Assembly (NCBI GenBank): GCA_965223725.1 | Contig: CBDCXE010000006.1 | Span: 496,001 to 560,000, forward strand | Source of the DNA: CBDCXE01 sp965223725 [NCBI: Nitrospinota bacterium] | GTDB taxonomy: Bacteria; Nitrospinota_A; UBA7883 | Length of the DNA stretch: 64,000 bases | Direction: 5' to 3' | Shown here: in pieces, positions 5,639-54,778 of the stretch | Layout: each line of letters starts with the position of its first letter | Position numbering within the stretch: the stretch's first letter is position 1 | Program-made: the position numbers and the translations under genes | The notes under the pieces: generated by a model | Database searches by the model: none | Seen by the model: the letters and a program-made list of their open reading frames with translations, nothing else | Told to the model about the DNA's origin: nothing

Positions 5639-5643
5639 GCGAT

Positions 5644-20160: not shown

Positions 20161-20802
20161 TTATTCGGTGTCGTTCGCCAGCCTGATTTCCTGATCAAGC
20201 TGGCTGCACATATCCAGATGCTGCTCCAGGATAGTGGAAGAAGAATCTGTGACCTCCAGTGATATTCCAAATGCGTCGCAAGATTCTTTCGCTTTTTCAG
20301 TGAAATAATCCATATCACCAACGCCAGTATCGATAAGAAGACCACGCTGACAACCATTAAATATCTCCTTCGCCACTTCCATATGATCGACCCCGTAATC
20401 CCTGGCCTTGTTGATATGAAGCTTGTTGAATATCAAATCTATACCTTGCTCCGCCCATCCCGGGGTCATGAACCAGGTGCTCGCTTCTTTCTCTACTTCC
20501 TTGGCGTAGCGCTCCGGTGTGAGGAGGATAGCTATACAATCCCTTTCCTGGGGGTGGACGATGGGAATGTCAAACTGTTCATCGATCCTATACAGCGACT
20601 GGCAATATCCATAACCGAGGAAAATCACATCAACTCTGTCCTTAAGCGAGTTGATCTGCTCCACCAAAGCCTCTTTCAGCTTTTGAGGGTACATATGATC
20701 GCAGGCGTCTATATAGATAACCTCCGTGATATCGTCCCTCTTTTCCATAACTTTGTCCAGCTCCCGCTTCATTATCTTGCAGGCGAGGACACCAATGCTC
20801 AT
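20161..20802 (-). CDS. DUF1638 family protein
   Basis: The 213-residue protein starts with 'IGVLACKIMKRELDKV' and contains 'VIFLGYGYCQSL' and 'HPQERDCIAILL', which match my memory of the DUF1638 family. That family is often encoded beside corrinoid methyltransferases in archaea and anaerobic bacteria. Conserved Cys residues near 8, 31, 72 and 91 might bind metal or corrinoid; no function is established. It is the last gene of the riboswitch-controlled operon and starts two bases after the UroD gene upstream. Confidence 0.75.
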   Translation of the reverse strand: MSIGVLACKIMKRELDKVMEKRDDITEVIYIDACDHMYPQKLKEALVEQINSLKDRVDVIFLGYGYCQSLYRIDEQFDIPIVHPQERDCIAILLTPERYAKEVEKEASTWFMTPGWAEQGIDLIFNKLHINKARDYGVDHMEVAKEIFNGCQRGLLIDTGVGDMDYFTEKAKESCDAFGISLEVTDSSSTILEQHLDMCSQLDQEIRLANDTE

Positions 20803-20804
20803 GG

Positions 20805-21827
20805 TTAGTTTACCAGGCTGGCGGTTCTAGGCTCTGAATAGTTGATCGATTTGACAGTATCCACATACGCGCGAATATTTACCAAAGGAGTGTCAGGCAA
20901 AATGCCACATCCGGGCGCTATGATATCCAGGCCTGCGTCTTTCACTTCGTTGACCATATCCACCACGTCATCCGGCGACCCCAGGAACAATTGCTGTACA
21001 TTCAGGTTGCCCACCAGCGCGCATTTACCTTCCAGATCCTCTCTGGCTTTTTGTATATCCACAGGAAAATCGATCGATAGTCCGTTGGCTCCTGTGGCGG
21101 CCATCTCTTTTATCACTTTGCTGGGGTTGCCGCAAATATGCAATATTGATGGCACATTGAATGTGTCGATCAGTTTTGTGGTGTATGGACCGGAAAACTC
21201 GGTGAACAGGCCAGGGTTCAATGTCTGCGAAGTGCCATCGACAACCATCATGACATCCACACCAGCATCCATTAGACATTTGGCGTATACAGTTTGCATC
21301 GCCAGAATTTTGTCTAACATGTCAAATATTTTGCCTTTGTCATCTCCTATATCTTCAAATATTTCCTCGAAGCTGTATACAGTGCACAATACTTCAAATG
21401 GTGTTCCCAATGCTGCAATCAACGGCATGTCAGCCTCTTTTTCTTTGCTGACTATTTTGACCGCTTTTATTACTTCCGCCATTCTGCCTGATGTTGAGGG
21501 GTCAGGATATATCAGGCTATCGAGGGTGTTTCTGCCTTTAGGCTTGCTTATTGGAGGGTCCGATTCCGATCCATATCGGGTGTCACACCCCATCGACTCC
21601 GCCTCGATATTAATATCGAACGGCACGCGAATGGCCTCGTATCCGCATACTTTTGTCAAACCAAGCGCCAACTGGGCCATCGGCTCCGCATTGCGCAGCG
21701 CATCCGGCCAGAAGACGCCAACCTCTTTCATGGCGCCCACAGTTGCGTTTTGGGTTGGCACGACCACTGGAGGTCGATCTACCGGTTTCATATCTAGTAC
21801 GTTTAACAATCGCTCCTTGAAGGTCAT
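20805..21827 (-). CDS. UroD-type (MtaA/CmuA-like) methyltransferase 1
   Basis: The 340-residue TIM-barrel protein belongs to the uroporphyrinogen decarboxylase/methylcobamide methyltransferase family. Expected zinc ligands of the methyltransferase branch are present: His-x-Cys in 'SILHICGNP' near 238 and a Cys in 'APGCGILPDTP' near 312. This supports methyl transfer to or from a thiol via a corrinoid rather than haem synthesis. The N-terminal 'PVDRPPVVVP' is also typical. Its start overlaps the end of the SelW-like gene. Which of the three paralogues acts on the primary substrate cannot be told. Confidence 0.85.
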   Translation of the reverse strand: MTFKERLLNVLDMKPVDRPPVVVPTQNATVGAMKEVGVFWPDALRNAEPMAQLALGLTKVCGYEAIRVPFDINIEAESMGCDTRYGSESDPPISKPKGRNTLDSLIYPDPSTSGRMAEVIKAVKIVSKEKEADMPLIAALGTPFEVLCTVYSFEEIFEDIGDDKGKIFDMLDKILAMQTVYAKCLMDAGVDVMMVVDGTSQTLNPGLFTEFSGPYTTKLIDTFNVPSILHICGNPSKVIKEMAATGANGLSIDFPVDIQKAREDLEGKCALVGNLNVQQLFLGSPDDVVDMVNEVKDAGLDIIAPGCGILPDTPLVNIRAYVDTVKSINYSEPRTASLVN

Positions 21828-22051
21828 GCTATCTCCTTTATTATATCCATTATTTCGCCTTTGTTTGGCAACCTGCCAAGCTCATCTTTCGAATAGACAG
21901 TATTGCCATCAACTATCACATTAAAAACACCGTTTTTGCCAGCTATATAATCTATTTCACACTCATATTCACTCTTAATATCCATCGCCAGTTTCCCGGC
22001 AATCGGCATATAGTTACAAACCTTGCAATATTCGAATACAATTTTCATCAC
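21824..22051 (-). CDS. SelW/Rdx-family thioredoxin-like protein (Cys form)
   Basis: This 75-residue protein has a CxxC redox motif in 'YCKVCNYMPIAGKLA' and a later 'FNVIVDGNTVYSKDELGRLP', the layout of SelW/SelT/SelH-like Rdx proteins, whose CxxC/CxxU site acts in thiol redox. Here both motif positions are Cys, unlike the selenoprotein just upstream in the operon. It starts 18 bases after that gene ends and overlaps the following UroD gene, so it is a full operon member. A role in reducing the neighbouring selenoenzyme is a reasonable guess. Confidence 0.75.
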   Translation of the reverse strand: MMKIVFEYCKVCNYMPIAGKLAMDIKSEYECEIDYIAGKNGVFNVIVDGNTVYSKDELGRLPNKGEIMDIIKEIA

Positions 22052-22069
22052 TTATAGCTCCTTTGATGT

Positions 22070-22816
22070 TCAAATCTTTGTCGCGTATAATACAATGCCT
22101 TTGGTTATTGGCGAGCTGTTGATCCCGGTCTCGCCTTTTATCTCTGGTTGCTTAAATCCTGCGTCTTTTAACATTGCCAGGAAAACCTTTCCCGGTATAG
22201 CGCCGCCCTCTCACCTGAACCAGCTTTTAACCAGATCCTCTTTGCATACTGCTTCATCCGAGGTCAATACCTGATCGGCGACCATCAGCTGGCCATTATG
22301 TTTCAGAACTTTGTGCATTTCATTAAACATTTTTTGTTTATCTGTGACAAGGTTTAAAACACCGTTGGATATTATAAAATCAAAATGATTTTCTGGAAAC
22401 GGCAACCGGTCGTCACTGATTTCGACAAATTCGATATTTTCCAGGTTCATTTCATCGGCGTTCTGTCTGGCGCGCTCCAGCATGCCTGGTGTGATGTCCA
22501 CCCCGGTAACTTTACCCGATGGCCCAACCAGAATCGACGCTACGACACTGTCCAGGCCGGCTCCACTGCCTATATCCAGAACGTGGGCGCCTTCGTTTAT
22601 CCGCCCCAGTTTGAAAGGGTTGCCCACTCCACAGTAAGACTTGCTAACAGAATCCGGGATTGATTCCAGGACGCTTGCATCATACTCAAGAAAATCGAGC
22701 GCCGCTTTGCCAGTTATATAATTAAATTGGCCATCGGCGTTTAAAGCTACTTTAGAGTATTTATCATGTATGCTTTCTTCGATAAGTTTTTTATCTTCAG
22801 CAGAGAGAGCCTGCAT
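22070..22816 (-). CDS. ArsM-like SAM methyltransferase, predicted selenoprotein (UGA = Sec at residue 202)
   Basis: Read conventionally the gene stops at TGA 22213-22211 after 201 residues. Reading through gives 46 further residues in the same frame (EGGAIPGKVFLAMLKDAGF...) to TGA at 22072-22070. This tail has the expected C-terminal region of ArsM-like methyltransferases, where homologues as I recall carry Cys in a 'CxxGAL' motif; UGA falls on that Cys. A hairpin with a GGU loop lies at the right distance downstream (22177-22195). The SAM-binding motif is VLDIGSGAGLDS near 80. Of the other ArsM arsenic-binding Cys positions, one is Gly here (ISNGVLNL), so arsenite need not be the substrate. 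It lies between 4Fe-4S and SelW-like genes. Confidence 0.8.
22177..22195 (-). promoter_or_regulatory. Bacterial SECIS-like hairpin
   Basis: On the coding strand CCGGGAAA-GGT-TTTCCTGG forms eight pairs (one G-U) with a three-base GGU loop. The stem starts 16 bases after the in-frame UGA and the loop G is 24 bases after it, within the usual spacing for bacterial SECIS elements, whose apical loop G and U are recognised by SelB. It lies entirely inside the read-through coding sequence. Confidence 0.8.
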
Positions 22817-22834
22817 AAGGTCGCGCCTCCCCTT

Positions 22835-23590
22835 CTAACCGGTGGCGGATTGCTTTGCCAGGCCCTTGATATCGCCAATAGGACAGCTCATAAAACATAT
22901 ACCGCAAACAGGCAAACCATACTTCGGTTCGTTGGTTACCATAAAGTCAGAGCAAGCTTTAATATCAACCAGTTCATCGTTACCCATGTCGCGGGTCCAG
23001 TTTATACCTTTGATCGCAGATACCGGGCAGACAGACTCGCATATGCCACAACTAAAACATTGACCCTCTGTATACTTTGTCGACGAAGGCTTCAGTGGCG
23101 CGTTGGTCAGGATTGTGGCCCAGAAAAGGTTCGGGCCATATTTTTTGTTCAACAACATTCCGTTTTTGCCTATCCACCCAAGCCCTGCGCAGGTTGCCGC
23201 GGTACGGTGTGGGAACAGGCTGTGTAAATATGAAGAGAACTTCCGCTCGGAACTGTTATGGATAGGAGGCAAGGAAAAGTATTTAAATCGACGCATCTTG
23301 AATTCTTTTTCCAGGGAACGAAGAATTCTGCCAAGGGTTTCTATCGCGTCGTTACTTTCCTCCATATAAGAGAGTATTTTGCGATGCTTTGTATCATCTG
23401 AGTCATCTCTACCATAAGAGCCATTGTTTTTATCCTGATAATATACAGCGATAGAAACCGCTCTGGTAAAATGTTGAAATTCCCCAGGCATAGCCATTTG
23501 CACATCATCATCAGACAGGTCAGCGACATCAACCAGATCTGCGCCCAAACCGATGATCCTGCGCTTAAGCCTCTCTGTTTTTATGGGCAT
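22835..23590 (-). CDS. 4Fe-4S double-cluster protein, QueG/reductase-like
   Basis: The 251-residue protein ends in a two-cluster ferredoxin domain: CFSCGICESVCPVSAIKG near 190, plus a Cys in 'KACSDF' and CGICFMSCPIGD near 235. The middle segment 'AATCAGLGWIGKNGMLLNKKYGP' is the conserved stretch shared by epoxyqueuosine reductase and corrinoid-dependent reductase-like proteins. It is shorter than QueG (about 350) and lacks the HEAT domain, so it is probably an electron-transfer protein for the corrinoid system, for example to RACo. It sits 18 bases upstream of the selenoprotein gene. Confidence 0.78.
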   Translation of the reverse strand: MPIKTERLKRRIIGLGADLVDVADLSDDDVQMAMPGEFQHFTRAVSIAVYYQDKNNGSYGRDDSDDTKHRKILSYMEESNDAIETLGRILRSLEKEFKMRRFKYFSLPPIHNSSERKFSSYLHSLFPHRTAATCAGLGWIGKNGMLLNKKYGPNLFWATILTNAPLKPSSTKYTEGQCFSCGICESVCPVSAIKGINWTRDMGNDELVDIKACSDFMVTNEPKYGLPVCGICFMSCPIGDIKGLAKQSATG

Positions 23591-23725
23591 ATGACATCCA
23601 TCCTTGCTTATGACGCTTTATACAAACGACTATACGCTCTGAATCAGTCTAATCTTGCATATGCAAAATTATCCTGATCCACAGCTTCCAGGTTTTCTAA
23701 TGAAAACCTGTCCCGGGTAAGCCTG

Positions 23726-23959
23726 CTAAACTTTCTGCAGTTCAGACCTTTTAACTTTCACAAACTGCTTTGGTCCAACAGTTATTCTCACAAAGAGACC
23801 CGAATGAAATTCCTTCTCCATGCATTCATATTCTTTCGAATTTTCCAGCTTGACGATATCATCCCCTTTGGTAAGTTTCGCGTCTCTCGTTTCACCAATG
23901 TAGTTGACCCTCATTCTACCAGATGATTTGGAATATATTACTCTATCTCCGCTTGCCAT
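23726..23959 (-). CDS. Small unknown protein of the corrinoid operon
   Basis: The start at 23959 follows AAGGAGACGCAA, a strong ribosome-binding site, giving 77 residues. The frame's earlier ATG (23998) lacks such a site. The protein is rich in beta-forming and charged residues (GDRVIYSKSSGRMRVNYIG, FVRITVGPKQFVKVKRSEL) and could be a small beta-barrel. No family was recognised and no Cys motif is present (a single Cys near 45). It lies between the RACo-like and 4Fe-4S genes. Confidence 0.6.
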   Translation of the reverse strand: MASGDRVIYSKSSGRMRVNYIGETRDAKLTKGDDIVKLENSKEYECMEKEFHSGLFVRITVGPKQFVKVKRSELQKV

Positions 23960-24028
23960 TTGCGTCTCCTTAAAAAGATAAAATTTAGATATCACCACAT
24001 ATTTCCGACAACATAGAGTCGTCAGATT

Positions 24029-26074
24029 TCAACTTTTTTTACTTACTGATTTCCAAAGATGCTCCGAAAGAGGAAATTCGTTTGTCATATGAGGAAATTG
24101 CATAGCAGCGCCAAACCGGTCGTTAAAATCCGCTTCCAACGCCAACTCAATATATTCCACTTGTGTAGCTATCTCGTTTGCCTCACGACGTTTATCCGTA
24201 TTCAGCAATGCCGCCCTGGCGCCATCACCCGCCGAGTTCCCAAGAAAAATTATTTTTTCCGGATCACAGTCTGGATACATACCTATCACTAAAGCCTGAT
24301 CTTTGTCAATATGACTTCCGAAAGCTCCAGCTATCGCCAGCCGGTCAAAATTACATCCCATCTTGTTCATCATTATCTCACAACCGGAATATAGCGACCC
24401 CTTGGCCAGCTGTATCGCCCGGACATCTTTAATGTTCACATAAATATCTTCTTCAATGGCGGTTTCATGCGCCCAGGCAATTACATACTCCGGCACACCT
24501 TTCGTCCGCTCCCGAACCCGCGGTGTATCCAGCTCCATATTAAACCGACCGCTTTTTTCAATTATACCGGTTTTAAACATCTCCGCAATGGCGTCGATAA
24601 TGGCAGATCCGCAAATACCACGCGCCTGCATATCTTCTTTACCATCGCTCCACTTATCACTTCCGATAACCTGGTAAGAAGCCTCCAGGGTTTCCGGGTC
24701 TATTTTTATCTTTTCAATGGCGCCCGGGGTAGCTCGAATACCATAAACAACCTCACCACCTTCCAGGGCCGGGCCAGTAGCTGTCGAACAAGATATAAGC
24801 TTATCCTTGTTGCCAAACACAAGCTCACCATTTGTTCCAATATCGATCAGCAAGGTCATCTCTTCACGATCATAAGGAGCGTCAGCAATCAGACAACCAA
24901 CGTTATCCGCGCCAACAAACCCAGCTTCAATCGGCAACACATGCACATTACCAGAAGGAAGCATATTCAATCCAAACCGCTCCGCCTTTACATCCACAGA
25001 TTTGTGCAACGCAGGCGCAAAGGGCGCCGCGCCAATATATTCCGGATTGATACCCAACAGAATATGGTGCATTGCAGTATTACCCACCAGCACCACCTCG
25101 CTGACATCTTCAGGCTTCAGCCCCACTTTTTCCGTAGAGTTTTCAACAATAGTGGAAAGACCACGAATAATTGTATCTTGCAATTCTTTGATACCCGCCT
25201 GCTCATTAATCATGCAATACGTTATGCGAGACATAACATCCTCACCATAACTGACCTGAGGATTCATCATCGATTCTGTGGTCAAAACCTCGCCAGTATT
25301 CAAATCGGTCAGATACCCTGCGACAGTTGTCGTTCCAATATCAACCGCCAAGCCAATATTAGTGTCAACTTTGCCCGGCTCAACACGAATAATTTCTCTA
25401 TTATTAAGTACGGTAACCGTCACCTTCCATTGCGAGTTTCTTAGTGTGTCCGGTATACCTTGCAATACTTTGTAGTCAGCGTCGACTTTTTCTATGCCAT
25501 GCTCCTCCGCCAAAGCGCTTTCGATCCGCTCCAGGTCGCCCTTGGGATCATGCAGGTCTGGTGGGGTCAACTCAAGGTAATATTTTCTCACCGCAGGTTT
25601 GATTTCTATATCAATATCGCTGGCAGCCTTGCTGACAATAGATTCGCCAGTCCGGCTTCCTTCCGGCACAAACACCAGAACATCACCCATAACCTTGGTG
25701 GAGCAAGCAAGCCGGATATTTTCTTCCAGCTCTTCAGAGGCGAGCTCCGCATGCTTCTTTTTCAGTTTTTCAAGTTTTTTCTCTGCCTTTTCACGATCTA
25801 TAACTGTCTTGGCCGCGGCAATTTCCGCTTCAAGCTCGATAACAATTTTTTTATCTTTCTCCGCCATTCTGCTCACATGGCTCAAAGACGAAGTTATGCC
25901 TTCCTTGGGGAACTCTCCTTCCATTATTTGTACTTTACACTTACCACAGGTAAGATTATCACCACAAACAGCTTCTATCCCCACTCCCAGTTTTCTGGCA
26001 GCGTTTAATATTGTAGTCCCATGAGGTACGCTGGCGCGCCTCCCGGAAGGTTGGAAGATTACATTATGCTCCAT
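24029..26074 (-). CDS. Corrinoid activation protein, RACo-like (2Fe-2S plus DUF4445 ASKHA domain)
   Basis: The 681-residue protein fits the ATP-dependent reductive activators that return inactive Co(II) corrinoid proteins to Co(I). An N-terminal plant-type [2Fe-2S] domain has C37, C43 and C46 (AVCGDNLTCGKC). The fourth Cys (C124, RLACST) is displaced by a charged coiled coil at about 73-118 that I do not recall in standard members. The C-terminal half has ASKHA motifs: AVDIGTTTVAGYL near 242, VGNTAMHHILLGI near 333, LLIDIGTNGEL near 410 and AGAFGSHID near 590. It lies 78 bases downstream of the corrinoid protein gene, its likely target. Confidence 0.9.
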   Translation of the reverse strand: MEHNVIFQPSGRRASVPHGTTILNAARKLGVGIEAVCGDNLTCGKCKVQIMEGEFPKEGITSSLSHVSRMAEKDKKIVIELEAEIAAAKTVIDREKAEKKLEKLKKKHAELASEELEENIRLACSTKVMGDVLVFVPEGSRTGESIVSKAASDIDIEIKPAVRKYYLELTPPDLHDPKGDLERIESALAEEHGIEKVDADYKVLQGIPDTLRNSQWKVTVTVLNNREIIRVEPGKVDTNIGLAVDIGTTTVAGYLTDLNTGEVLTTESMMNPQVSYGEDVMSRITYCMINEQAGIKELQDTIIRGLSTIVENSTEKVGLKPEDVSEVVLVGNTAMHHILLGINPEYIGAAPFAPALHKSVDVKAERFGLNMLPSGNVHVLPIEAGFVGADNVGCLIADAPYDREEMTLLIDIGTNGELVFGNKDKLISCSTATGPALEGGEVVYGIRATPGAIEKIKIDPETLEASYQVIGSDKWSDGKEDMQARGICGSAIIDAIAEMFKTGIIEKSGRFNMELDTPRVRERTKGVPEYVIAWAHETAIEEDIYVNIKDVRAIQLAKGSLYSGCEIMMNKMGCNFDRLAIAGAFGSHIDKDQALVIGMYPDCDPEKIIFLGNSAGDGARAALLNTDKRREANEIATQVEYIELALEADFNDRFGAAMQFPHMTNEFPLSEHLWKSVSKKS

Positions 26075-26152
26075 TTAATTATTCCCCTTAATCCCTTTTA
26101 TATATAAGCGTGGAACCCGATTTATATACCGGGCCCCACACGATGTTAATCA

Positions 26153-26830
26153 TTAATTCGGTGACACTAAACCCTTGCGCAGTGAATCCAGCATGTTCAT
26201 CGCTTCCCGAAGCGCGTTCGGCGCGTTGTCAGCTGTGGTATCTGCGCCATAATCCTCAACCGTCTTCTCACTGATTGGCGCTCCGCCGATCATGATCATA
26301 GTATTCGGATTTTTCTCCTTGATCATCGGAATCAGCTTCTTCATACCAACCATCGATGTGGTCATCATGGCCGAAAGCATAACTATATCCGAATCTGTCT
26401 TCAACTGCTCGTCCACAAAGCTCTGCAGCGGCACGTCGCGACCCAAATCATGAACTTCCCAACCGGCGGATTCGAAAATCGCCTTGATCAGGTTTTTGCC
26501 CAGATCATGAACGTCACCCAGCATAACGCCAAGCACAACCTGACCTTTAATGCCATCGCTTGTTTCGATATGCGGCTTCAATACGTCAAGCGCCGCATAC
26601 AATGCTTTTGCGCAAAGCAGTGTTTCCGGAACAAAGTATTCGTGACTATCAAACTTTTCACTAACAGTTTCCATTCCCCCTGCCAGGCCGTCCATAGTCA
26701 TACGATACGCGTTGCACCCGTCAGCCACAGCCGCTTCAGCCAGTTTCTTGGCTTCGTCAACCTTATAGTAGATAACCGCATCTTGCAAACCAGCGATTAT
26801 CTCTTGTTCTCTTTCTTCAGTACAAGCCAT
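26153..26830 (-). CDS. Corrinoid (B12-binding) methyl-carrier protein, MtaC/MtbC-like
   Basis: The 225-residue protein has an N-terminal helical cap domain (about 1-90) and a B12-binding Rossmann domain. The Co-ligand signature D106-x-H108-x2-G111 lies in 'GVMLGDVHDLGKNL', followed by 'SAMMTTSM' near 150 and 'IMIGGAPISE' near 180. His108 would replace the lower axial base of the cobamide. It should carry the methyl group between UroD-type methyltransferases encoded on either side, with reactivation by the adjacent RACo-like protein. Confidence 0.92.
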   Translation of the reverse strand: MACTEEREQEIIAGLQDAVIYYKVDEAKKLAEAAVADGCNAYRMTMDGLAGGMETVSEKFDSHEYFVPETLLCAKALYAALDVLKPHIETSDGIKGQVVLGVMLGDVHDLGKNLIKAIFESAGWEVHDLGRDVPLQSFVDEQLKTDSDIVMLSAMMTTSMVGMKKLIPMIKEKNPNTMIMIGGAPISEKTVEDYGADTTADNAPNALREAMNMLDSLRKGLVSPN

Positions 26831-26862
26831 TATATTCTCCTTAACATTTAAAAAAGTTGTTT

Positions 26863-27921: not shown

Positions 27922-27977
27922 AATATCCTCTCCTAATTACAGTTAAATGAACTCAAAAACTACTACTACCCTCACAC

Positions 27978-28649
27978 TTAATCAACTAGGATCAGCCCAC
28001 TCCAGATAATCTCATTTTCGGGAGGCATCTTAAATGGCAGTCCTGCGTTAATACATGTTTTAAAAACATCAACCCCTACACCTTCCATGGAAGGCCTGGC
28101 CTGGTACGGAAAACGGCATTTTTCACCAGAGTTGACATCCACACACTCTCTGCAGAGCATGCAGTCTCCACCAATAAAACCTGTCGTATAGTGAAAACCC
28201 ATAGACATGGACATAGCTTCCACATCATTAACCAACAGGTGCAGCCTTATGGCGGCAAGCTTCATATTGTCCAGGTCAGTATATACTTCTTCTGATTCTT
28301 TTATTTTTTTATTGCTGGCGCCGGGCGCCGCTATAAACTTTAAGACCTTCTCCTTGTCCGCATCGGCAAGCTCGCCGGTAATTGAGCTTCTGGTCTGCAC
28401 CAGCAACGCGTTATCATAAGTGGCCAGAACCTTTCTGAACTCGTCCACCGACATGATGTTCGGCGGGCAGGTCAGGCAGTGACCATAATGCGGGCACAGC
28501 GGTATTTCGCATTTCATCCTGACCCGATCATCCACGACTATCTCACGGGCCGAGAACACCTTCGCTTTATAAGCGCCTTTATCCATCGCCTCTTTACACA
28601 ACTGTTCAAGCTGTGTAGATTTATCGACCAGATGTAATGATTTGCTCAT
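27978..28649 (-). CDS. DUF2284 predicted metal-binding protein
   Basis: The 223-residue protein has the Cys clusters of DUF2284: 'CEIPLCPHYGHCLTCPPN' near 48-65 and 'CMLCRECVDVNSGEKCRFP' near 165-183, enough for one or two Fe-S or Zn sites. Members are often found beside corrinoid methyltransferases and may donate electrons, but a biochemical role is not established as far as I know. It lies between the zinc-ribbon protein gene and UroD paralogue 2. Confidence 0.8.
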   Translation of the reverse strand: MSKSLHLVDKSTQLEQLCKEAMDKGAYKAKVFSAREIVVDDRVRMKCEIPLCPHYGHCLTCPPNIMSVDEFRKVLATYDNALLVQTRSSITGELADADKEKVLKFIAAPGASNKKIKESEEVYTDLDNMKLAAIRLHLLVNDVEAMSMSMGFHYTTGFIGGDCMLCRECVDVNSGEKCRFPYQARPSMEGVGVDVFKTCINAGLPFKMPPENEIIWSGLILVD

Positions 28650-28660
28650 AACAAAATTAC

Positions 28661-28885
28661 CTATTTCATAAAATGAAATTTTTTCGGTTTATATGTCCTG
28701 GCGTTAACCATGTTCTCATTCAGCACTTTATGTTTTATCTTCCAGCATTTCGGACACATGTAGCGGGATCGCAAACCACGGTCCATCCCTACGTATCTTT
28801 TTTCCAAATGGTCTCTGCACGCTTTTGTGCTACAGTCTGGACAGATATAGATAGCTGGTTTTTTGCATTTAAAACAGACTTCCAT
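28661..28885 (-). CDS. Small zinc-ribbon-like protein
   Basis: The start at 28885 follows GGAGAG and gives 74 residues; earlier ATGs lie inside the VWA gene. The N-terminus MEVCFKCKKPAIYICPDC has a CxxC...CxxC zinc ribbon, with a further Cys-His pair (KACRDHLEKR) and CPKC near 52. The C-terminus is basic. Its frame overlaps neither neighbour. It may bind metal or nucleic acid, or act as an adaptor for the VWA protein. No specific family was recognised. Confidence 0.65.
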   Translation of the reverse strand: MEVCFKCKKPAIYICPDCSTKACRDHLEKRYVGMDRGLRSRYMCPKCWKIKHKVLNENMVNARTYKPKKFHFMK

Positions 28886-28901
28886 CTTCTTCTCTCCTAA
28901 C

Positions 28902-31574
28902 CTAACTTGTAAGACGTTTATAAATAAGTGGCATGATAACAGGCAAAGCTTCCACATTATTAATAACAGTGAAGTTCGACTCACCATACATATAAGGAAG
29001 ATACTCGCTGCTCTTTTTATCCACCGTAATACAAAAATAGGTCAAACCTTGTCTTCGCCCCTCCATAAGCGCCATCCGTGTGTCTTCCAGGGAGTATGTT
29101 GAATCGCCATAATCCACATCATAGGGCCTGCCGTCTGATAATAATATCAATATTCGGATCCTTGATGACTGCTTTTTCAATATGGAGCTGGCATGCCGAA
29201 TCACCGCGCCCAGCCTGGTCTGCGCCATCGGCTTCATACCTTCAAAACGCATCTTGACTTCATCATCATACTGGTCATCAAAATCGTGAATGACGTAAAA
29301 ATCCACCTTCTCTTTAGTCTTGGTGGAAAAACCGTATACTGCCCACTGATCCCCTATGCTTTCCAATGCCTCCGCCATCAAAACGATTCCCTCTTTTTCC
29401 ACATCGATTATTCTTTTACCCGACGGCATTTCGTCACTAGTAGAATAACTCATATCGACCAGGAACGCCACAGAGACATCCCTCAGGTTTTTTTCCCTTC
29501 GTATATATACCTTGTCTGATGGGGTTAATCCAGCTTTTCTGTCTATGATCGATTCAATCAATGCGGAGTAATCTATATCATCGCCCCGCTCTTCGCGGAA
29601 AAATCGCTGGATCCTGTCTGGGCGGAGCATGCTGAAATGCCGACGCAACTGGCTGACAACACCGTAATTGTTTTCTATAGCTTCGTTGTAAAACGACAGA
29701 CTGGACGGGGCCATATCCATCTCGCGAACCTTGCACCAGCTTTTGTTGTAATCATCTATTCCATTGTTCCATTCATCGTAATGAACAGTCCGCCTGATAG
29801 CTTTTTCCGACTCCAGGTCCTTGATGGTCATCTCAATCACTTCGAAAAGATCATCTCTTTTCTCCGGGTCGTCAACACGCCAGATCAGATCCTCAGGCTC
29901 GATCCCTTCGTTCTCTTCAATTCTGTCGAACGCCTCCAGCACAGTTTCTTTTGTAAGGTCGTCAAACTTGTCATCGAACCGGGACATGGAATCCTCCAGA
30001 AGATTCTCCATCCCGACTTTGGCGTTCTTTACCAACTCGAAATCGAGAACGCCCCTGTAGAACGGCCTTTCCGGTGTCTTGCGCTCTGTTTCAGAGGTCA
30101 CATCCTTGTCCCCTTCCACCTGCTTGTATATATCGTACGCCAGGTCCAGGGTAGATTGCGCCGTTGCGCTGGTCGATTTTATTTTCTGAACAGCTTCACC
30201 CAGCAAGCTCGCCAGCTTTGCTTCGAAATGGCCTGCGTTTTCCAGGTTTTGCGGAACACCGAAACAGATCGATTCAAATACAGACAACGGCTCATCGGCT
30301 CTCTTTGCCAGATACTTTTTCGCCAATCCTGCCCTGTCCTTAACCAGGCCTGGGTATTGCTCACCCATCAAAAAGTCAACCCGCTCATCTTCCAGGAACT
30401 CAAAAACCCGAAACGCCATGGCGGAATCGTGAAAGCCGTTCAGCCTGGCAACGTCATCCACCGTCAGTTCAAAGGTGCCATGTTGCTGATGCGCGATCTC
30501 GTGGGCCAGCGATAGTTTGAATGTCATGAAATCGAGGTCTTCATCACCAAACACCGAAATTTGTGATGGGAGAAAAATGTTGGCCCCGTCGGTGACACTG
30601 AGAAACCGCGCCAGGCCGGGCAGGTTTTTGTAGAAAAGTGATGAAGAGCGTAAAAGAACTTTTGATTCGGCAAGCGCCTCGGCGTATGGTCGAAGCACGG
30701 TATGGATCTCTTTCAGCTCCAGCCCCTGGACCAGCCCTTCCACCGCCTGACGACCGCTGCTGGTCTGCAAGGAAAAGAACGCGTTGCCTTTTGTTTTATG
30801 CTGGTCGGTGACCTGCAGCCCCTGCTCCACCCATTTTTCTATATCGTTCATCGACAGCCGGCTGAGTATCTGCGGCGCCGATTTGAAATATTGTATGCCC
30901 AGGTCCAGTTTTTTGCTTTTCCCTGCCAATGCGCCAACGGCCAGCAGGCTTTGGGCTTTATGCTTGGCTTTAATTTTTGGGCTTTTCTCCACCAGGTCGA
31001 TACCCAGCCCTACCCATCGCTCCATATCGCCCGGCTCTATCTTGGTGACCGCCTCCGGGCTGGCCTTGAAATACTCTTTTGCCGCCCGCCACGATTTGCC
31101 TGCCAGCTTATTGCCCAGGCCGGCCCATTCAGAAAATTTGGCGCCGCCCAGATGCTGCAACACCTTCGGGCTGGCGTTCAGATATTCCACCGCCACATCC
31201 TGATCGACACTGGCCAGCGAAGCGGCGTTTTCCAGCCAGTCGAGATGGAACCCGTGATCGGTCTCGGATATTTCGACCATTTTTTTGAATGATGCGATGC
31301 CGACGCTCCAGTTGGCCTTGCCCATACCGATGATAATCTCCAGGGCGGTGCGGCGATCATCCTTGCTATCTATAACAGACAGCGCCCTGGCGCCGGAGCC
31401 TAACAACCATTCGCATGCGGATTTGTTGAAAGAATGGAACATTTCTGCAATACTGAAAAAACTGTCCAGGCCTTGCTCATCCAGAATCGGCCCGACTTCT
31501 TCAAGACATTGGGCGAACAGCGCTTCCTGCCCAATCTTCTTGCCCAAGTCAGATCCTGTTTGCGTCATGGTCAC
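28902..31574 (-). CDS. VWA-domain protein, CbbO/NorD-like partner of a MoxR ATPase
   Basis: The 890-residue protein has a long helical-repeat N-terminal half (recurring ~30-residue units such as 'WAGLGNKLAGKSWRAAKEYFKASPEAV'), a middle region with 'LSLAHEIAHQQHG' resembling a metallopeptidase HExxH motif, and a C-terminal VWA domain. The VWA MIDAS residues lie in 'VAFLVDMSYSTSDE' near 690 and 'LLSDGRPYD' near 810. CbbO and NorD proteins work with MoxR ATPases to activate rubisco or insert iron in NO reductase. The gene starts three bases after the ATPase gene. Its client here is probably an operon enzyme (inference). Confidence 0.88.
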   Translation of the reverse strand: MTMTQTGSDLGKKIGQEALFAQCLEEVGPILDEQGLDSFFSIAEMFHSFNKSACEWLLGSGARALSVIDSKDDRRTALEIIIGMGKANWSVGIASFKKMVEISETDHGFHLDWLENAASLASVDQDVAVEYLNASPKVLQHLGGAKFSEWAGLGNKLAGKSWRAAKEYFKASPEAVTKIEPGDMERWVGLGIDLVEKSPKIKAKHKAQSLLAVGALAGKSKKLDLGIQYFKSAPQILSRLSMNDIEKWVEQGLQVTDQHKTKGNAFFSLQTSSGRQAVEGLVQGLELKEIHTVLRPYAEALAESKVLLRSSSLFYKNLPGLARFLSVTDGANIFLPSQISVFGDEDLDFMTFKLSLAHEIAHQQHGTFELTVDDVARLNGFHDSAMAFRVFEFLEDERVDFLMGEQYPGLVKDRAGLAKKYLAKRADEPLSVFESICFGVPQNLENAGHFEAKLASLLGEAVQKIKSTSATAQSTLDLAYDIYKQVEGDKDVTSETERKTPERPFYRGVLDFELVKNAKVGMENLLEDSMSRFDDKFDDLTKETVLEAFDRIEENEGIEPEDLIWRVDDPEKRDDLFEVIEMTIKDLESEKAIRRTVHYDEWNNGIDDYNKSWCKVREMDMAPSSLSFYNEAIENNYGVVSQLRRHFSMLRPDRIQRFFREERGDDIDYSALIESIIDRKAGLTPSDKVYIRREKNLRDVSVAFLVDMSYSTSDEMPSGKRIIDVEKEGIVLMAEALESIGDQWAVYGFSTKTKEKVDFYVIHDFDDQYDDEVKMRFEGMKPMAQTRLGAVIRHASSILKKQSSRIRILILLSDGRPYDVDYGDSTYSLEDTRMALMEGRRQGLTYFCITVDKKSSEYLPYMYGESNFTVINNVEALPVIMPLIYKRLTS

Positions 31575-31577
31575 TCG

Positions 31578-32408
31578 TTATATTATAGAAGAGACTATCT
31601 CTTCCAAGGTTTTCCTTATCTGGACATCATCGGTGATCGGGTCTATCAAAGCGCTGGTGCACGCCCGTCTCGGCTCGATCCCGTTCTTTATCAGCACCCC
31701 TGCGTATATCAGCAACCTGGTGGACGCGCCTTCGTCCAGGCCGCTGTTTTTCATGGTACGAAACTTCTCCGCCACTTTGCGCAGGTCATTGGCGTCTTTT
31801 GCGCTTACACCGCTTTCATGGACGATGATCTCTTCTTCCAGGCTGGCGGCGGGATAATCGAAATCTAGGCTGATAAAGCGCTGTTTCGTGCTCTGCTTCA
31901 AATCCTTAAGCACTGTCTGGTACCCGGGGTTATAAGAAATCGCCAGCATGAAATCGTCGCTGGCTTCCACAATATGCCCACGCTTCTCCAGCGGCAAAAC
32001 CCGCCGGTCATCGGTGAGTGGGTGGATAACAACGGTGGTGTCTTTTCTGGCTTCCACAATCTCATCCAGATAGCAGATGCCGCCATGTTTGACCGCCGTG
32101 GTCAACGGGCCATCCTGCCATACCGTCGAGTTGCCATCCAGGAGGTACCGGCCAACCAGGTCACTCGATGTCAGGTCTTCGTGACATGCCACAGTAATAA
32201 GCGGAAGCTCCATCTTGTATGCCATATACGACATAAACCGGGTCTTGCCGCAACCGGTGGGACCCTTTAACATAACTGGCAGCTTATGCTCATATGCAAT
32301 CTCGTATAACTCGACTTCATCACCAGCAGGAAGATAGAATGGCTCTTCCTCTATCCTGTAATCCTGAATATCCGTCTCGGTGCCGGGCTTTACCATTGCG
32401 TGTGACAT
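31578..32408 (-). CDS. MoxR-family AAA ATPase, CbbQ/NorQ type
   Basis: The 276-residue ATPase has Walker [12 protein letters not shown] near 49, Walker B '[11 protein letters not shown]' near 112 and the sensor segment '[11 protein letters not shown]' near 155. This is the length and pattern of CbbQ/NorQ/NirQ proteins. These form hexamers that bind a VWA partner and remodel or metallate a client enzyme. Pairing with the adjacent VWA gene is conserved. Finding it inside a corrinoid methyltransferase operon is unusual. Confidence 0.92.
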
Positions 32409-32436
32409 ATTTTATTTTTCCTTTAAACCAAAGGGG

Positions 32437-32847
32437 CTAGGCAAGCTCCTTTGTATAATTAAATTTGTCCAGAACCTGATCCAGCGAAGATTCTGTAAGC
32501 TCTTTTACTTTTTCTTTTTCGATACCAAACACCACCGAGTTTACAGTAACAACCATTTTCCCGACCGGCTCTCCATCCTGGCCATTGACCGTTGCTTCAG
32601 CGCCTTCACCAACGACAGAGCCATAGTAATACTGCCCCTCAGCTTCAATATGCGCTTTCACATGACCAATATCTATAACACCGTTATCTATCAGGGTCTG
32701 TGATAATGTCAGCAACAGGTCTTGGATAAAATTGCGCAATTCGACAGGATCCACCTCTTTCGCCATGGTAACTTTATGGCTCATGCCATACGAGTTTATC
32801 CCTTCGTGGGGCAGTGGCTTATTCGAGGTCTCCTGAATATCGTTCAT
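32437..32847 (-). CDS. Unknown 136-residue protein of the corrinoid operon
   Basis: No family was recognised. The protein has a polar N-terminus, a helical segment (VELRNFIQDLLLTLSQTLIDNG), a Gly-rich beta region (YYYGSVVGEGAEATVNGQDGEP) and an acidic helical C-terminus. There are no cysteines, signal or membrane helices. Its start overlaps the GTPase stop and it precedes the MoxR gene by 28 bases, so it is tightly coupled to the GTPase-ATPase-VWA block and may be an adaptor. Confidence 0.65.
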   Translation of the reverse strand: MNDIQETSNKPLPHEGINSYGMSHKVTMAKEVDPVELRNFIQDLLLTLSQTLIDNGVIDIGHVKAHIEAEGQYYYGSVVGEGAEATVNGQDGEPVGKMVVTVNSVVFGIEKEKVKELTESSLDQVLDKFNYTKELA

Positions 32848-33461
32848 GCGTTTACTGTAATTTCGATAATATCATCGGCGATCTCTTCGACACCTTCACC
32901 ATTTTTAGTAGAGATGAAAATGATTTTCGCGGATGGATTGGTTTTCGAGACAAACTCACCTGCTGTTTTTACATCTTCTTTACTACTCGCGTCCATCTTG
33001 CTAAGCGCCACAATATCCGCGTCATTCAGCTGCGTGGTGACAAGCCGCTTCAGCGTTTCGTAACTTATCAGCTTATCGACGCGTGTAGTGTCAAAAAGCA
33101 CAACGGTAGGGCCAAAACTGATATCTGTCTCTTCGTTGGTATGCTTTGCCACATCATTTATGGCATTCGGCACGGCAATCCCCGTCGGCTCTATAATAGT
33201 AATATCCGGCTTTTGGGTCGCCGCCAATGCATTCAAGGTGGCTATAAGGTTGCCAGCGATCTGGCAACATATACAGCCACCCCCAATATCTTTAACCGTA
33301 AGGCCAAATTCACTCATCACCTTGCCATCCACTGGAACTTCGCCAACATCGTTGACCAGGATCGCAACTTTCTTCCCTTTTTCAGACAGCGCCCTGACCA
33401 AAGTCAGGATTAGTGTTGTTTTACCTGATCCCAGGTATCCGGCAATTTGAACAAGTTTCAT
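32844..33461 (-). CDS. G3E-family GTPase, CobW/HypB-like (metallochaperone)
   Basis: The 205-residue protein has P-loop GYLGSGKTTL (residues 8-17), the metal-binding signature GGGCICCQ near 61-68 (the CxCC of COG0523), 'EPTGIAVP' near 91 and the specificity motif 'LSKMD' near 150. It lacks the C-terminal domain of CobW, so it is a minimal GTPase module. Such proteins deliver Zn, Co or Ni to enzymes, so a role in metal or cobamide supply to the operon's methyltransferases is plausible. It lies 26 bases downstream of UroD paralogue 3. Confidence 0.85.
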   Translation of the reverse strand: MKLVQIAGYLGSGKTTLILTLVRALSEKGKKVAILVNDVGEVPVDGKVMSEFGLTVKDIGGGCICCQIAGNLIATLNALAATQKPDITIIEPTGIAVPNAINDVAKHTNEETDISFGPTVVLFDTTRVDKLISYETLKRLVTTQLNDADIVALSKMDASSKEDVKTAGEFVSKTNPSAKIIFISTKNGEGVEEIADDIIEITVNA

Positions 33462-33487
33462 ACAAGCCTATAATAAATTGTTAATAA

Positions 33488-34501
33488 TCAACCCTTAAGT
33501 GATACAACCAGCTCCTGCATATTCTCTGGTGTAACTTCCGGCCAGATGTCGCAACCAGGCCATACCGCGCTGGCGCCTTCGCACATTTTCAACACTTCCG
33601 GCTTCACATCCGCCAGGCTGCCCTGATGCAAGACTTTGATAGGATCAAAGCCGCTCAGAATTATCGCTTTTTCGCCCAGCTTTTTCCTGCTCTCGGCCAT
33701 ATCGTTTTTGTGGTCCACACTCACTGCGTCGGCGCCACATTCGGCCATCGATTCAATGATGTAGTTGGTGTTTCCACAAATATGAAGAATGGAAGGGCGT
33801 GGCATTTTTGAAATGACGTTGATCAGGTGCGGCTTTACAAGGCTGTTAAAGCTTTTCGGGCTCATAACATCCGATGTTGCGCCCATTTCTCTCAATGTGA
33901 AATAGTCAGCGCCGGCTTCTTCATAAATTTTGAATGCGCTAACCACCACGTCTGACAGTTTCCCAAGCAGGTCGTTCGTTTTTTCTGGAGCGGTGAAGGA
34001 CTCTTCAAGCAGCTCATCAAGCTCCTTGAGCTGGCCGGCCAGTGTGAAAGGCCCAAGCACATGAACACCAACGGCCACTTCGTCGCCAAAATCTTTTTTC
34101 AGCAATTTGATAGCTTCAACAACAACCGGGATCCTGCCAGCGGTGGCCAGATCGTCAGGATAGCTAACGTTATTATCGGGACCAACAGATTTTTCCCGGA
34201 TCGTTGGATAGAGAACCTGGTTCTCACCTTCATAAAAATTCGGTTTCGATCCCAGGGCCTCCGCCTCGACAGCCAGGTCGAACGGCACCACCGCGCATTC
34301 GAAACCATATTCATGATACATCCCCGCCGCCGCTTTGGCCATCTCTGCCGGGTCGCGATGAACGTTGTGGAATTGAATACCGTACTTATCCAACACTGGT
34401 TTAATTATGTTACCCATACCGCTAAAGACTGGCGGACGGTCTACTTCTTTACCGGCTAAAAAATCGAGAACCCTCGCTTTGGGTGTTAACGTACTAGACA
34501 T
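33488..34501 (-). CDS. UroD-type (MtaA/CmuA-like) methyltransferase 3, first gene of operon
   Basis: The 337-residue UroD-family protein begins 'TPKARVLDFLAGKEVDRPPVFSG'. Its expected zinc ligands are His-x-Cys in 'SILHICGNT' near 240 and a Cys in 'VWPGCDIWPE' near 315, as in paralogue 1, which it resembles most. The ATG at 34501 follows AAGGTCATGAT. It is the first gene after the cobalamin riboswitch leader and hence the one most directly controlled by B12. Confidence 0.87.
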   Translation of the reverse strand: MSSTLTPKARVLDFLAGKEVDRPPVFSGMGNIIKPVLDKYGIQFHNVHRDPAEMAKAAAGMYHEYGFECAVVPFDLAVEAEALGSKPNFYEGENQVLYPTIREKSVGPDNNVSYPDDLATAGRIPVVVEAIKLLKKDFGDEVAVGVHVLGPFTLAGQLKELDELLEESFTAPEKTNDLLGKLSDVVVSAFKIYEEAGADYFTLREMGATSDVMSPKSFNSLVKPHLINVISKMPRPSILHICGNTNYIIESMAECGADAVSVDHKNDMAESRKKLGEKAIILSGFDPIKVLHQGSLADVKPEVLKMCEGASAVWPGCDIWPEVTPENMQELVVSLKG

Positions 34502-34755
34502 ATCATGACCTTATTTTTTTGAAGTTTTTGGTTTGGAAACAGGTATGTTGATAACCAACCTTGGTTAAGCTGTCAGGATCCAGGAGAGATATTCGCTCCC
34601 TGAATGTGAGAGGCGCAGATAGCGTGCTTGCGTCGCTTACATCACAAAAGCAAATATTCGCTTTGTAAAGCATGGCCTTGTCCTATTCCCCAATTTAATC
34701 TGGTGTCAATTCCCAAAAGGCTCTCTACGAAACCCAGGAAACATTAAACAACATT

Positions 34756-34906
34756 GGCAGGTATTCTGGCTCGCGGATCGTTCTAATTGCATTGCCTTCC
34801 CACACAATATTGTATGCAGTGGCGCTCATCATGCTTTCGTCCCCGCTTACAGCGGCGAGACCGCAACCGATTTTAACGGTTTTCCCTATTAACTGACTGG
34901 ACCAAA
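34756..34906 (-). promoter_or_regulatory. Cobalamin (B12) riboswitch
   Basis: On the minus strand the order of conserved blocks matches the adenosylcobalamin riboswitch: AATAGGGAA, AATCGG-TTGCGG, CGCCGCTGTAA, GCCACTG, GGGAAGGC and finally the B12 box AGCCAGAATACCTGCC (34771-34756). It begins around 34906 and ends 255 bases before the first UroD start. Expression of the operon should fall when cobalamin is plentiful (known for the class). The leader between the box and the gene carries no obvious intrinsic terminator, so control may be at translation or by another route. Confidence 0.93.
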
Positions 34907-54723: not shown

Positions 54724-54746
54724 CGGCAATTTTTTTGCGACATTAT

Positions 54747-54758
54747 TTGTATATACAA
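54747..54758. promoter_or_regulatory. MarR operator copy 2, upstream of the 4Fe-4S/SCP2 gene
   Basis: TTGTATATACAA, identical to the palindrome at 54255 and extended to TAGTTGTATATACAA on the opposite strand, lies 20 bases before the ATG at 54779. A -35-like TTGCGA (54735-54740) precedes it, so the gene may have its own regulated promoter. Confidence 0.7.
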
Positions 54759-54778
54759 CTAATTTCAAGGGAGCAATC

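What the first reader, a model, noticed from the sequence alone, without database searches (positions are those of the whole stretch)
20161..34906. Riboswitch-controlled corrinoid operon joining methyl transfer with a MoxR/VWA chaperone pair
Seen: fifteen minus-strand genes with small or overlapping gaps behind a cobalamin riboswitch. They include three UroD-type methyltransferases with His-x-Cys...Cys zinc ligands, a corrinoid protein (DxHxxG) and a RACo-like activator, plus a CbbQ/NorQ ATPase, its VWA partner and a CobW/HypB-like GTPase. Known: UroD-type enzymes act in corrinoid C1 metabolism (MtaA, CmuA); MoxR/VWA pairs activate rubisco or NO reductase. Inference: a new C1 or demethylation pathway whose corrinoid enzyme needs ATP-driven remodelling or metal/cobamide insertion. 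No recognised MttB/MtaB/MtmB-type substrate enzyme is present, so one UroD paralogue may be the substrate enzyme.
Basis: partly seen in the sequence, partly recalled or inferred. Interest (0 to 1): 0.92.

Follow-up and report, generated by a model that had tools for sequence, protein, structure and literature searches.

The report
B12 methyltransferase operon with MoxR/VWA pair
A bacterial operon, probably from the phylum Nitrospinota, joins B12-dependent enzymes that may strip methyl groups from sulfur- or selenium-type compounds with an ATP-driven protein pair known elsewhere for inserting metals, and it hides a selenocysteine gene that looks truncated; if the pairing is functional it would be a new client for that machine.

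Summary
Sixteen minus-strand genes (20161-34501) lie behind a cobalamin riboswitch (34739-34922): three UroD-type enzymes with His-x-Cys...Cys, a corrinoid protein, RACo, a CbbQ/NorQ ATPase, a NorD-like VWA protein, a CobW-type GTPase, DUF1638 and others. One gene was hidden: the ArsM-like gene reads through an in-frame UGA, predicted selenocysteine.

The order UroD1-CobW-p136-MoxR-VWA-Zn-DUF2284 recurs in four relatives; UroD2-corrinoid follows in three of them and on one cut contig. VWA of this type was found in 5 of 24 genomes of the phylum; no other genome among 385 matched along its length at the threshold used.

Best reading: a variant of the published mlp-cluster/SdmABC kind of corrinoid S/Se-methyltransferase system. 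UroD2 is the likely substrate enzyme; UroD1 and UroD3 group with MtaA. CobW plus p136 may be a split COG0523 metallochaperone. MoxR/VWA is inferred to be a NorQD-like insertase or remodelling machine for these enzymes; nothing here shows its client. The riboswitch was found only in the window (0 of 3 relatives with intact fronts).

Verdict: new variant of a known kind, fairly interesting.

The parts
34739..34922 (-). cobalamin riboswitch (RF00174)
   Evidence: cmscan 97 bits vs gathering 31.5; not found in 3 relative operons with intact fronts, even at E up to 5
33488..34501 (-). UroD1: SCMT/MtaA-like methyltransferase
   Evidence: PF01208; H240/C242/C317; in one 100/98 clade with MtaA and UroD3; under the PRK06252 (235 vs 244) and TIGR01463 (204.8 vs 235.4) cut-offs
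32844..33461 (-). CobW/COG0523-type GTPase, G domain only, GCICC motif
   Evidence: PF02492 126.3 bits; NF041053 CobW-related selenoprotein 134.5 bits, below its cut-off of 180
32437..32847 (-). p136: possible detached CobW C-terminal-like domain
   Evidence: no Pfam family; model pLDDT 87; Foldseek's three best rows are YjiA or its mutant, E 0.003-0.007, none under 0.001; relative in G024 begins with a DHDHDH run
31578..32408 (-). MoxR AAA+ ATPase, CbbQ/NorQ type
   Evidence: CbbQ_C and AAA_5; CbbQ and NorQ structures E 2.6e-95 or better; Cys pair 53/75 kept in 5 of 5
28902..31574 (-). NorD-like VWA protein, 890 aa
   Evidence: NorD structure 9qhd matches 585-888, E 1.5e-57; MIDAS
28661..28885 (-). 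small Cys-rich (zinc-ribbon-like) protein
   Evidence: weak B-box/HIT matches below cut-off; 62-70% identical in 5 relatives
27978..28649 (-). DUF2284 predicted metal-binding protein
   Evidence: PF10050
26863..27921 (-). UroD2: divergent UroD enzyme, candidate substrate methyltransferase
   Evidence: PF01208; own clade; H242/C244/C328
26153..26830 (-). corrinoid protein, DVHDLG
   Evidence: B12-binding domains; 80-84% identical in 4 relatives
24029..26074 (-). RACo/RamA-type reductive activase
   Evidence: RACo domains and Fer2
23726..23998 (-). small conserved protein p90
   Evidence: no family; 51-54% identical in L001 and L009
22835..23590 (-). 4Fe-4S protein, QueG/RDH-like C-terminus
   Evidence: seen beside the block only in window and L001; not searched genome-wide
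22070..22816 (-). ArsM-like SAM methyltransferase, predicted selenoprotein
   Evidence: read-through raises NF041536 from 253.3 to 325.5 bits; TGA at the same codon in 5 relatives, TGT in a sixth
22211..22213 (-). in-frame UGA, predicted selenocysteine 202
22177..22195 (-). predicted bacterial SECIS hairpin, GGU loop
   Evidence: minimum-energy fold in 4 of the 5 UGA sequences folded (6 known), not significant against shuffles; synonymous-codon identity 37/42 vs 230/614 elsewhere
21824..22051 (-). Rdx (SelW-like), CxxC here, in-frame TGA (CxxU) in L010
   Evidence: PF10262; L010 codon TGA; L010 copy TIGR02174 57.9 bits, cut-off 34.2
20805..21827 (-). UroD3: MtaA-family methyltransferase
   Evidence: above the TIGR01463 and PRK06252 cut-offs; beside MtaA in the tree
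20161..20802 (-). DUF1638 protein
   Evidence: PF07796 105.6 bits
35526..36317 (+). HTH + MEDS-domain regulator, divergent
   Evidence: HTH_17 and MEDS; 60% identical relative inside the L001 operon

Best explanation
The operon encodes a corrinoid-dependent S/Se-type methyltransferase system of the mlp-cluster/SdmABC kind, fitted with its own metal-loading machinery. UroD2 (His-Cys-Cys zinc site) takes a methyl group from a soft-element donor such as a methylated selenide or sulfide and gives it to Co(I) of the corrinoid protein. UroD1 and/or UroD3, which group with MtaA, pass it to a thiol acceptor. RACo, with DUF1638, returns Co(II) to Co(I). The CobW-type GTPase and p136 (its possible detached C-terminal half) deliver zinc. 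MoxR and the NorD-like VWA protein act as a NorQD-like ATP-driven insertase or remodelling machine on the UroD or corrinoid enzyme. The ArsM-like selenoprotein and the SelW-like Rdx handle the released or competing soft-element species. Shown here: genes, order, conservation, motifs, UGA read-through signature. Inferred: substrates, direction of methyl transfer, metal, and the client of MoxR/VWA.
For: Conserved block in relatives and shared distribution of VWA and UroD2. All three UroDs keep His-x-Cys...Cys, which PMC10418091 reads as S/Se rather than O chemistry. UroD1 and UroD3 form a 100/98 clade with MtaA and one UroD of a 3-UroD corrinoid cluster in Acetoanaerobium noterae; UroD2 lies outside it. 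No H4folate methyltransferase match among the 16 genes, as in mlp clusters. Selenium link: ArsM-like Sec gene, Rdx with in-frame TGA in L010, SelB above cut-off in 5 of 5 operon genomes and 10 of 24 in all, against 2 of 14 control genomes. CbbQ, NorQ and NorD are the closest solved relatives of MoxR/VWA, and NorQD is needed for FeB insertion into NOR (PMC13036017). No second NorQ/CbbQ-like gene in the four operon genomes whose contigs hold MoxR. COG0523 subfamily 13 sits beside corrinoid methyltransferases. DUF1638 and a RamA-like protein were both linked to B12-dependent methionine synthesis by mutant fitness in Phaeobacter (PMC5764234 passages).
Against: No substrate, metal or interaction is shown. 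The ArsM-like gene is adjacent only in the window and L001. In G023 and G024 no operon gene was found in the 13-19 kb read around it; in G019 and G021 it lies on contigs of 3-4 kb, so adjacency is unresolved; G022 has it without a VWA or operon-type UroD2 hit and without SelB above cut-off. UroD2 is far from every characterised UroD enzyme met here. The simpler Corr-UroD-UroD-RACo locus of G007 goes with no VWA or MoxR hit in that genome, so that core chemistry does not need MoxR/VWA. The YjiA match of p136 is weak (TM 0.34-0.39; other folds score higher Z). Halomethane chemistry remains open: CmuA and MecE are also UroD enzymes, the regulator has a MEDS (DcmR-type) domain, and response-regulator-like and kinase-like ORFs (by eye) lie just upstream, recalling the mec cassette. 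CdhC/AcsB: 0 of 24 genomes (of 14 controls only two archaea rang), so a Wood-Ljungdahl outlet looks unlikely.
Confidence: 0.5

Rival explanations
1. Haloalkane (chloromethane/dichloromethane-type) or other C1 catabolism: UroD2 is a CmuA/MecE-like dehalogenating methyltransferase and the MEDS regulator senses the halomethane.
For: The mec cassette also has several UroD proteins with a corrinoid protein and a two-component regulator; the regulator here has a MEDS domain and its relative lies inside the L001 operon; regulator-like ORFs at 36500-38896 look like a response regulator and a histidine kinase (by eye).
Against: No MTII of the MecF/H4folate kind among the 16 genes. UroD2 is about 25% identical to CmuA. 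In G019, G021 and G023 the MEDS gene lies beside ORFs that by eye are groES and/or groEL. CdmB, a solved haloalkane UroD, showed no zinc, whereas UroD2 keeps all three ligands.
Confidence: 0.15
2. Metalloid cycle: the system demethylates methylated arsenic, and the ArsM-like selenoprotein is its methylating or binding counterpart.
For: ArsM-type family matches; Sec at the codon where a relative has Cys.
Against: Score is under the curated cut-off of NF008823 (176.4 vs 263); no ars transporter or regulator match among the 16 genes; the ArsM-like gene is not always next to the operon.
Confidence: 0.12
3. MoxR/VWA acts as a CbbQO-like reactivase that frees an inhibited UroD-corrinoid complex, not as a metal insertase.
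For: CbbQ structures score somewhat better than NorQ against the MoxR; a CbbQ-VWA pair next to carboxysome genes shares the architecture.
Against: RACo already reactivates the corrinoid (by family); a CobW-type GTPase and p136 lie directly upstream.
Confidence: 0.25
4. MoxR/VWA and the corrinoid genes share an operon but act on different clients.
For: VWA is only 52-64% identical while the corrinoid protein is 80-84%, so the constraints differ.
Against: Fixed placement between UroD1 and UroD2 and joint distribution; no second NorQ-like gene in the four genomes where this could be seen.
Confidence: 0.15

Closest known systems
Type 1 mlp gene clusters / SdmABC (Kountz and Balskus preprint PMC10418091: results, discussion and legends read; SdmABC from passages of PMC11097638)
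   Same: Two or three SCMT-like UroD proteins, corrinoid protein, Ram/RACE activase, no H4folate methyltransferase, His-Cys-Cys zinc sites, selenium traits.
   Different: UroD2 falls outside the MtaA clade; MoxR, VWA, split CobW pair, DUF2284 and Zn protein are added. 'MoxR', 'VWA', 'AAA', 'CobW' and 'DUF1638' occur 0 times in the main text of that paper; its supplements were not seen.
NorQ/NorD (and CbbQ/CbbO) MoxR-VWA machines (PMC13036017: introduction, discussion and two result sections read)
   Same: CbbQ_C ATPase; VWA with MIDAS; cysteine pair 22 residues apart, as in NorQ C46/C68.
   Different: 890-aa VWA with its own N-terminal region; sits in a corrinoid methyltransferase operon; no nor or rubisco match among the 16 genes.
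mec cassette for dichloromethane (passages of PMC9768040)
   Same: Several UroD proteins plus corrinoid protein; likely activator genes in most versions.
   Different: No MecF-type MTII or transporter match among the 16 genes; 'MoxR' occurs 0 times in that paper's main text.
COG0523 subfamily 13 beside corrinoid methyltransferases (passages of PMC2770081)
   Same: GCXCC GTPase next to mtaA-type genes.
   Different: G domain and a possible C-terminal domain are separate genes.
Selenoprotein arsenite methyltransferases NF041536/NF041537/NF008823 (table passages of PMC13188914)
   Same: Sec in a UxxG motif (here U-E-G-G), homologous over residues 3-247.
   Different: No fused DUF2284/AhpD domain; DUF2284 is a separate gene of the operon; scores below curated cut-offs.

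Membership tests
type 1 mlp gene cluster | encodes at least an Mlp2 and an Mlp3 (published SSN/tree) | tested here: inconclusive
type 1 mlp gene cluster | corrinoid protein and Ram/RACE activase in the cluster | tested here: met
type 1 mlp gene cluster | His-Cys-Cys zinc ligands in the UroD proteins | tested here: met
   3 of 3
type 1 mlp gene cluster | selenium trait in the genome (87% of published species) | tested here: inconclusive
   SelB above cut-off in 5 of 5 operon relatives; the window's own genome is not held
NorQ/CbbQ MoxR ATPase | AAA_5 plus CbbQ_C, Walker A | tested here: met
NorD/CbbO VWA partner | VWA with DxSxS MIDAS adjacent to the MoxR gene | tested here: met
NorQD system for nitric oxide reductase | norB/norC client genes in the cluster | tested here: not met
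   no match among the 16 genes; not tested genome-wide
COG0523 metallochaperone | G3E GTPase domain with GCXCC | tested here: met
COG0523 metallochaperone | CobW C-terminal domain in the same chain (most, not all members) | tested here: not met
   205-aa chain with G domain only
COG0523 metallochaperone | p136 has the CobW C-terminal fold | tested here: inconclusive
   Foldseek's three best rows are YjiA, E 0.003-0.007, TM 0.34-0.39; Z 6.0-6.2 at ranks 34, 43 and 48
arsenite methyltransferase selenoprotein | Sec codon with SECIS | tested here: met
   by sequence only: conserved TGA, read-through homology and codon conservation over the hairpin; no protein evidence
arsenite methyltransferase (NF008823) | curated score cut-off 263 bits | tested here: not met
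   176.4 bits with read-through
mec cassette | MecF-type H4folate MTII | tested here: not met
   no match among the 16 genes

The most novel reading that the evidence does not exclude
A NorQD-type MoxR/VWA machine has a new client class: it inserts metal into, or mechanically resets, a corrinoid-dependent UroD-type methyltransferase complex, working with a split CobW metallochaperone, in a selenium-linked demethylation pathway in which UroD2 is a new substrate-specific family.
Probability: 0.35. Interest if true: 0.8.

Novelty: new variant of a known kind. Interest (0 to 1): 0.62.

Why it matters
How zinc and cobamide get into corrinoid methyltransferases is, as far as I recall, largely unexplored. 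A conserved operon that carries a NorQD-like pair and a possibly split COG0523 GTPase beside its UroD enzymes makes the question directly testable by co-expression. It would also extend corrinoid methyl-selenium/sulfur chemistry to Nitrospinota with a new UroD clade, and would give this MoxR/VWA type a client among soluble B12 enzymes (I recall no earlier one). The hidden selenocysteine genes would look truncated to a gene caller that treats UGA only as stop.

Tried and rejected
Looked for the operon outside the phylum. The single genome-contig scan gave one locus, L001. VWA over 385 genomes gave 23 with E at or below 1e-40; outside the five operon genomes the other 18 align from profile residue 327 or later, though tblastn adds weak N-terminal pieces of 22-27% identity in some. 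Six loci from five of those 18 genomes were read: 4 of 6 also have a MoxR hit, none a UroD hit, and one (L058) has a corrinoid-protein hit about 4 kb away. UroD2 over the same 385 gave four operon genomes plus G341, a 5 kb contig with UroD2-like and corrinoid genes but no MoxR/VWA; 2 further genomes of G341's phylum gave nothing. Plasmid searches with VWA, UroD2 and corrinoid gave only relatives under 60% identity.

A second selenocysteine in the MEDS regulators of G022 and G023, suggested by '1 TGA inside', was rejected: the TGA is the terminal stop. A supposed assembly duplication in L001 was my own error: the file held two records; the clean map is. Structure of the VWA protein: mean pLDDT 57, not used for fold search. 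Folding energy of the SECIS hairpin is not significant against shuffles; the case rests on codon conservation and read-through homology. With the Cys gene of G024 the hairpin codons agree at 3 of 5 comparable positions for each Sec gene, too few to show decay. Wood-Ljungdahl outlet set aside: CdhC 0 of 24. Riboswitch as a general feature rejected. Paper searches combining MoxR, von Willebrand, AAA ATPase or CobW terms with corrinoid terms: one search found 0 papers; others (12 found, 10 listed; 14 found, 6 listed) showed no title on MoxR/VWA in a corrinoid operon; the listed papers were not opened except those cited. Only the held open-licence library was searched.

Full report
WHAT IS THERE. 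The minus-strand run from 34501 down to 20161 holds 16 genes with gaps from -4 to 135 bases: UroD1, CobW-type GTPase, p136, MoxR (CbbQ/NorQ), VWA, a 74-aa Cys-rich protein, DUF2284, UroD2, corrinoid protein, RACo, p90, an Fe-S protein, an ArsM-like methyltransferase, Rdx, UroD3 and DUF1638 (families). A cobalamin riboswitch (97 bits) precedes it at 34739-34922, and a divergent HTH/MEDS regulator lies further upstream at 35526-36317. G+C is 0.43-0.53 in the nine 2-kb windows from 20 to 38 kb, against 0.53-0.60 in 18 of the 23 others.

LINEAGE. The window's own genome is not held. Its MnmE is 64% (partial match) to 54% identical to those of nine of the 24 genomes in the phylum of G001, the genome of L001, whose record title says Nitrospinota. 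Ten more of the 24 match at 42-47% and five not at the threshold used; the best match outside the 24 is 48%. So the window is close to a subgroup of that phylum, probably Nitrospinota.

CONSERVATION. L001 carries all 16 genes; its Fe-S gene is on the other strand and its DUF1638 is divergent upstream. UroD1-CobW-p136-MoxR-VWA-Zn-DUF2284 keep that order in L001, L008, L009 and L010 (UroD1 is cut in L009). UroD2 and the corrinoid protein follow in L001, L009, L010 and L007, with RACo complete in L001 and L009 and cut by the contig end in L007 and L010; the L007 contig ends inside VWA, and the L008 contig ends just past DUF2284. UroD3, Rdx and DUF1638 also lie beside the block in L010. VWA was found in 5 of 24 genomes of the phylum. 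Operon-type UroD2 (68% identity or more) was found in 4 of 24, the fifth lost to a contig end; 17 other genomes, G024 among them, have only distant UroD matches (27% or less) and 3 have none. In 385 genomes, those 24 included, matches along the length of VWA stayed confined to the five. In the four operon genomes whose contigs hold MoxR there is no second NorQ/CbbQ-like gene (next matches E 7e-5 or worse, none in G001). The riboswitch was not found in the three relatives with an intact front, so it is not part of the conserved system.

HIDDEN SELENOCYSTEINE. The ArsM-like ORF ends at UGA 22211-22213, but the frame continues for 46 homologous residues, to 22070 with the stop. Relatives in G001, G019, G021, G022 and G023 have TGA at the same codon and match past it; G024 has TGT. 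Twelve less similar matches have no stop inside. Fifteen bases after the UGA begins an 8-bp hairpin with a GGU loop; it is the minimum-energy fold in 4 of the 5 UGA sequences that I folded (of 6), not in the Cys gene, and not significant against shuffles. Among identical residues of four divergent genes, codons are identical at 37 of 42 positions in the hairpin codons and 230 of 614 elsewhere; for all six Sec genes 91 of 105 and 720 of 1591. Reading through raises the NF041536 score from 253.3 to 325.5 bits. SelB passes its cut-off in 10 of 24 genomes, including all five operon genomes but not G022, and in 2 of 14 control genomes. The operon's Rdx has CxxC in the window and L001, and TGA in place of the second Cys in L010. 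Selenoprotein arsenite methyltransferases with UxxG are already listed in PMC13188914 (table passages), so the family is known; the operon link is what I add.

THE METHYLTRANSFERASE CORE. All three UroDs keep His-x-Cys...Cys. A maximum-likelihood tree of 40 rows puts UroD1, UroD3, MtaA (PDB 4ay7 fragment) and MtaA-like UroDs of simpler corrinoid loci (Nitrospinota G007 and others; Acetoanaerobium noterae) in one clade (100/98), and UroD2 with a G341 protein in a separate one (100/100). An earlier tree of 43 rows agreed; between the two I dropped four rows of three loci (one long branch, the rest duplicates) and added MtaA. Rows were chosen by similarity to the window's UroDs, the CmuA row is a long branch and the deepest supports are weak (41/79), so the deep position of UroD2 is uncertain. 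The preprint PMC10418091 (results, discussion and legends read) describes over 100 genera with such clusters ('type 1 mlp gene clusters'): multiple SCMT-like UroD proteins, corrinoid protein and Ram/RACE, no H4folate methyltransferase, His-Cys-Cys ligands, strong selenium association, and Mlp2 activity with selenide. PMC11097638 (passages) reports a locus very similar to SdmABC induced under selenium depletion.

METAL AND REMODELLING GENES. COG0523 GTPases of subfamily 13 co-localise with corrinoid methyltransferases (PMC2770081 passages). Here the GTPase is a G domain only, and the overlapping next gene p136 (model pLDDT 87) matches YjiA, a COG0523 protein (name of the family recalled), in its three best Foldseek rows (E 0.003-0.007, none under 0.001, TM 0.34-0.39). 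A second aligner gives YjiA Z 6.0-6.2 at ranks 34 to 48 and ranks other alpha/beta folds higher, up to Z 9.0. The G024 relative starts with a DHDHDH run. I read the pair as a split zinc (or cobalt) metallochaperone, as inference. MoxR is closest to CbbQ and NorQ structures and VWA to NorD. NorQD is needed for FeB insertion into nitric oxide reductase (PMC13036017, introduction, discussion and two result sections read). The MIDAS residues are invariant in all six VWA sequences aligned. A cysteine pair with the same 22-residue spacing as the NorQ redox pair is kept in 5 of 5 MoxR sequences.

HOW IT MOST LIKELY WORKS. UroD2 demethylates a methyl-Se/S-type donor onto the corrinoid protein; UroD1/UroD3 pass the methyl to a thiol; RACo and DUF1638 keep cobalt reduced; the CobW/p136 pair and MoxR/VWA load or reset the zinc or corrinoid enzymes; the ArsM-like and Rdx selenoproteins deal with the soft-element side. 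Only the anatomy, conservation and read-through signature are shown. CdhC/AcsB was not found in any of 24 genomes (the only controls that rang were two archaea, and the genomes are drafts), so the methyl group probably does not enter acetyl-CoA synthesis.

AGAINST MY READING. The selenium genes are not all tied to the operon: around the ArsM-like gene of G023 and G024 no operon gene was found in the 13-19 kb read, in G019 and G021 the contigs are too short to tell, and G022 has it without VWA or operon-type UroD2. The MEDS regulator hints at other substrates, but in G019, G021 and G023 it lies beside ORFs that by eye are groES/groEL. The sample is small: six operons (window plus five), draft genomes, related to each other, so co-occurrence counts are not independent.

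Noticed in passing
window 54274-56098: MarR-like gene (by eye) followed by a second Fer4_16 4Fe-4S protein, QueG-like by eye (Pfam).
   Followed up: partly
window 2046-6666: Molybdopterin oxidoreductase with, by eye, an FeS subunit and an NrfD/DmsC-like membrane subunit.
   Followed up: partly
window 36500-38896: ORFs that by eye are a response regulator and a histidine kinase, next to the MEDS regulator upstream of the operon.
   Followed up: no
L088, L089, L090: The MEDS/HTH regulator lies beside groEL and/or groES (by eye) in three relatives, while it flanks or sits inside the corrinoid operon in the window and L001.
   Followed up: partly
L081 (G007), L080 (G010): Other genomes of the phylum carry a simpler corrinoid cluster with UroD genes (RACo and DUF1638 also seen in L081) without MoxR/VWA, resembling the published mlp clusters.
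   Followed up: yes
L060 (G253), L058 (G250): Related VWA genes lie near a CbiM cobalt-uptake gene (L060, with MoxR) and near a homocysteine S-methyltransferase and a corrinoid-protein match (L058, no MoxR hit); could be chance.
   Followed up: no
L010 10434-10655: SelW-like Rdx with in-frame TGA at the second cysteine of CxxC; no hairpin was examined.
   Followed up: partly
L001 7617-8073: The DUF2284 gene matches in two different frames in L001, perhaps a frameshift in the assembly.
   Followed up: no
L090 4679-6592: An ORF that by eye resembles a CooS-type CO dehydrogenase in G019, although CdhC/AcsB was not found in that genome.
   Followed up: no
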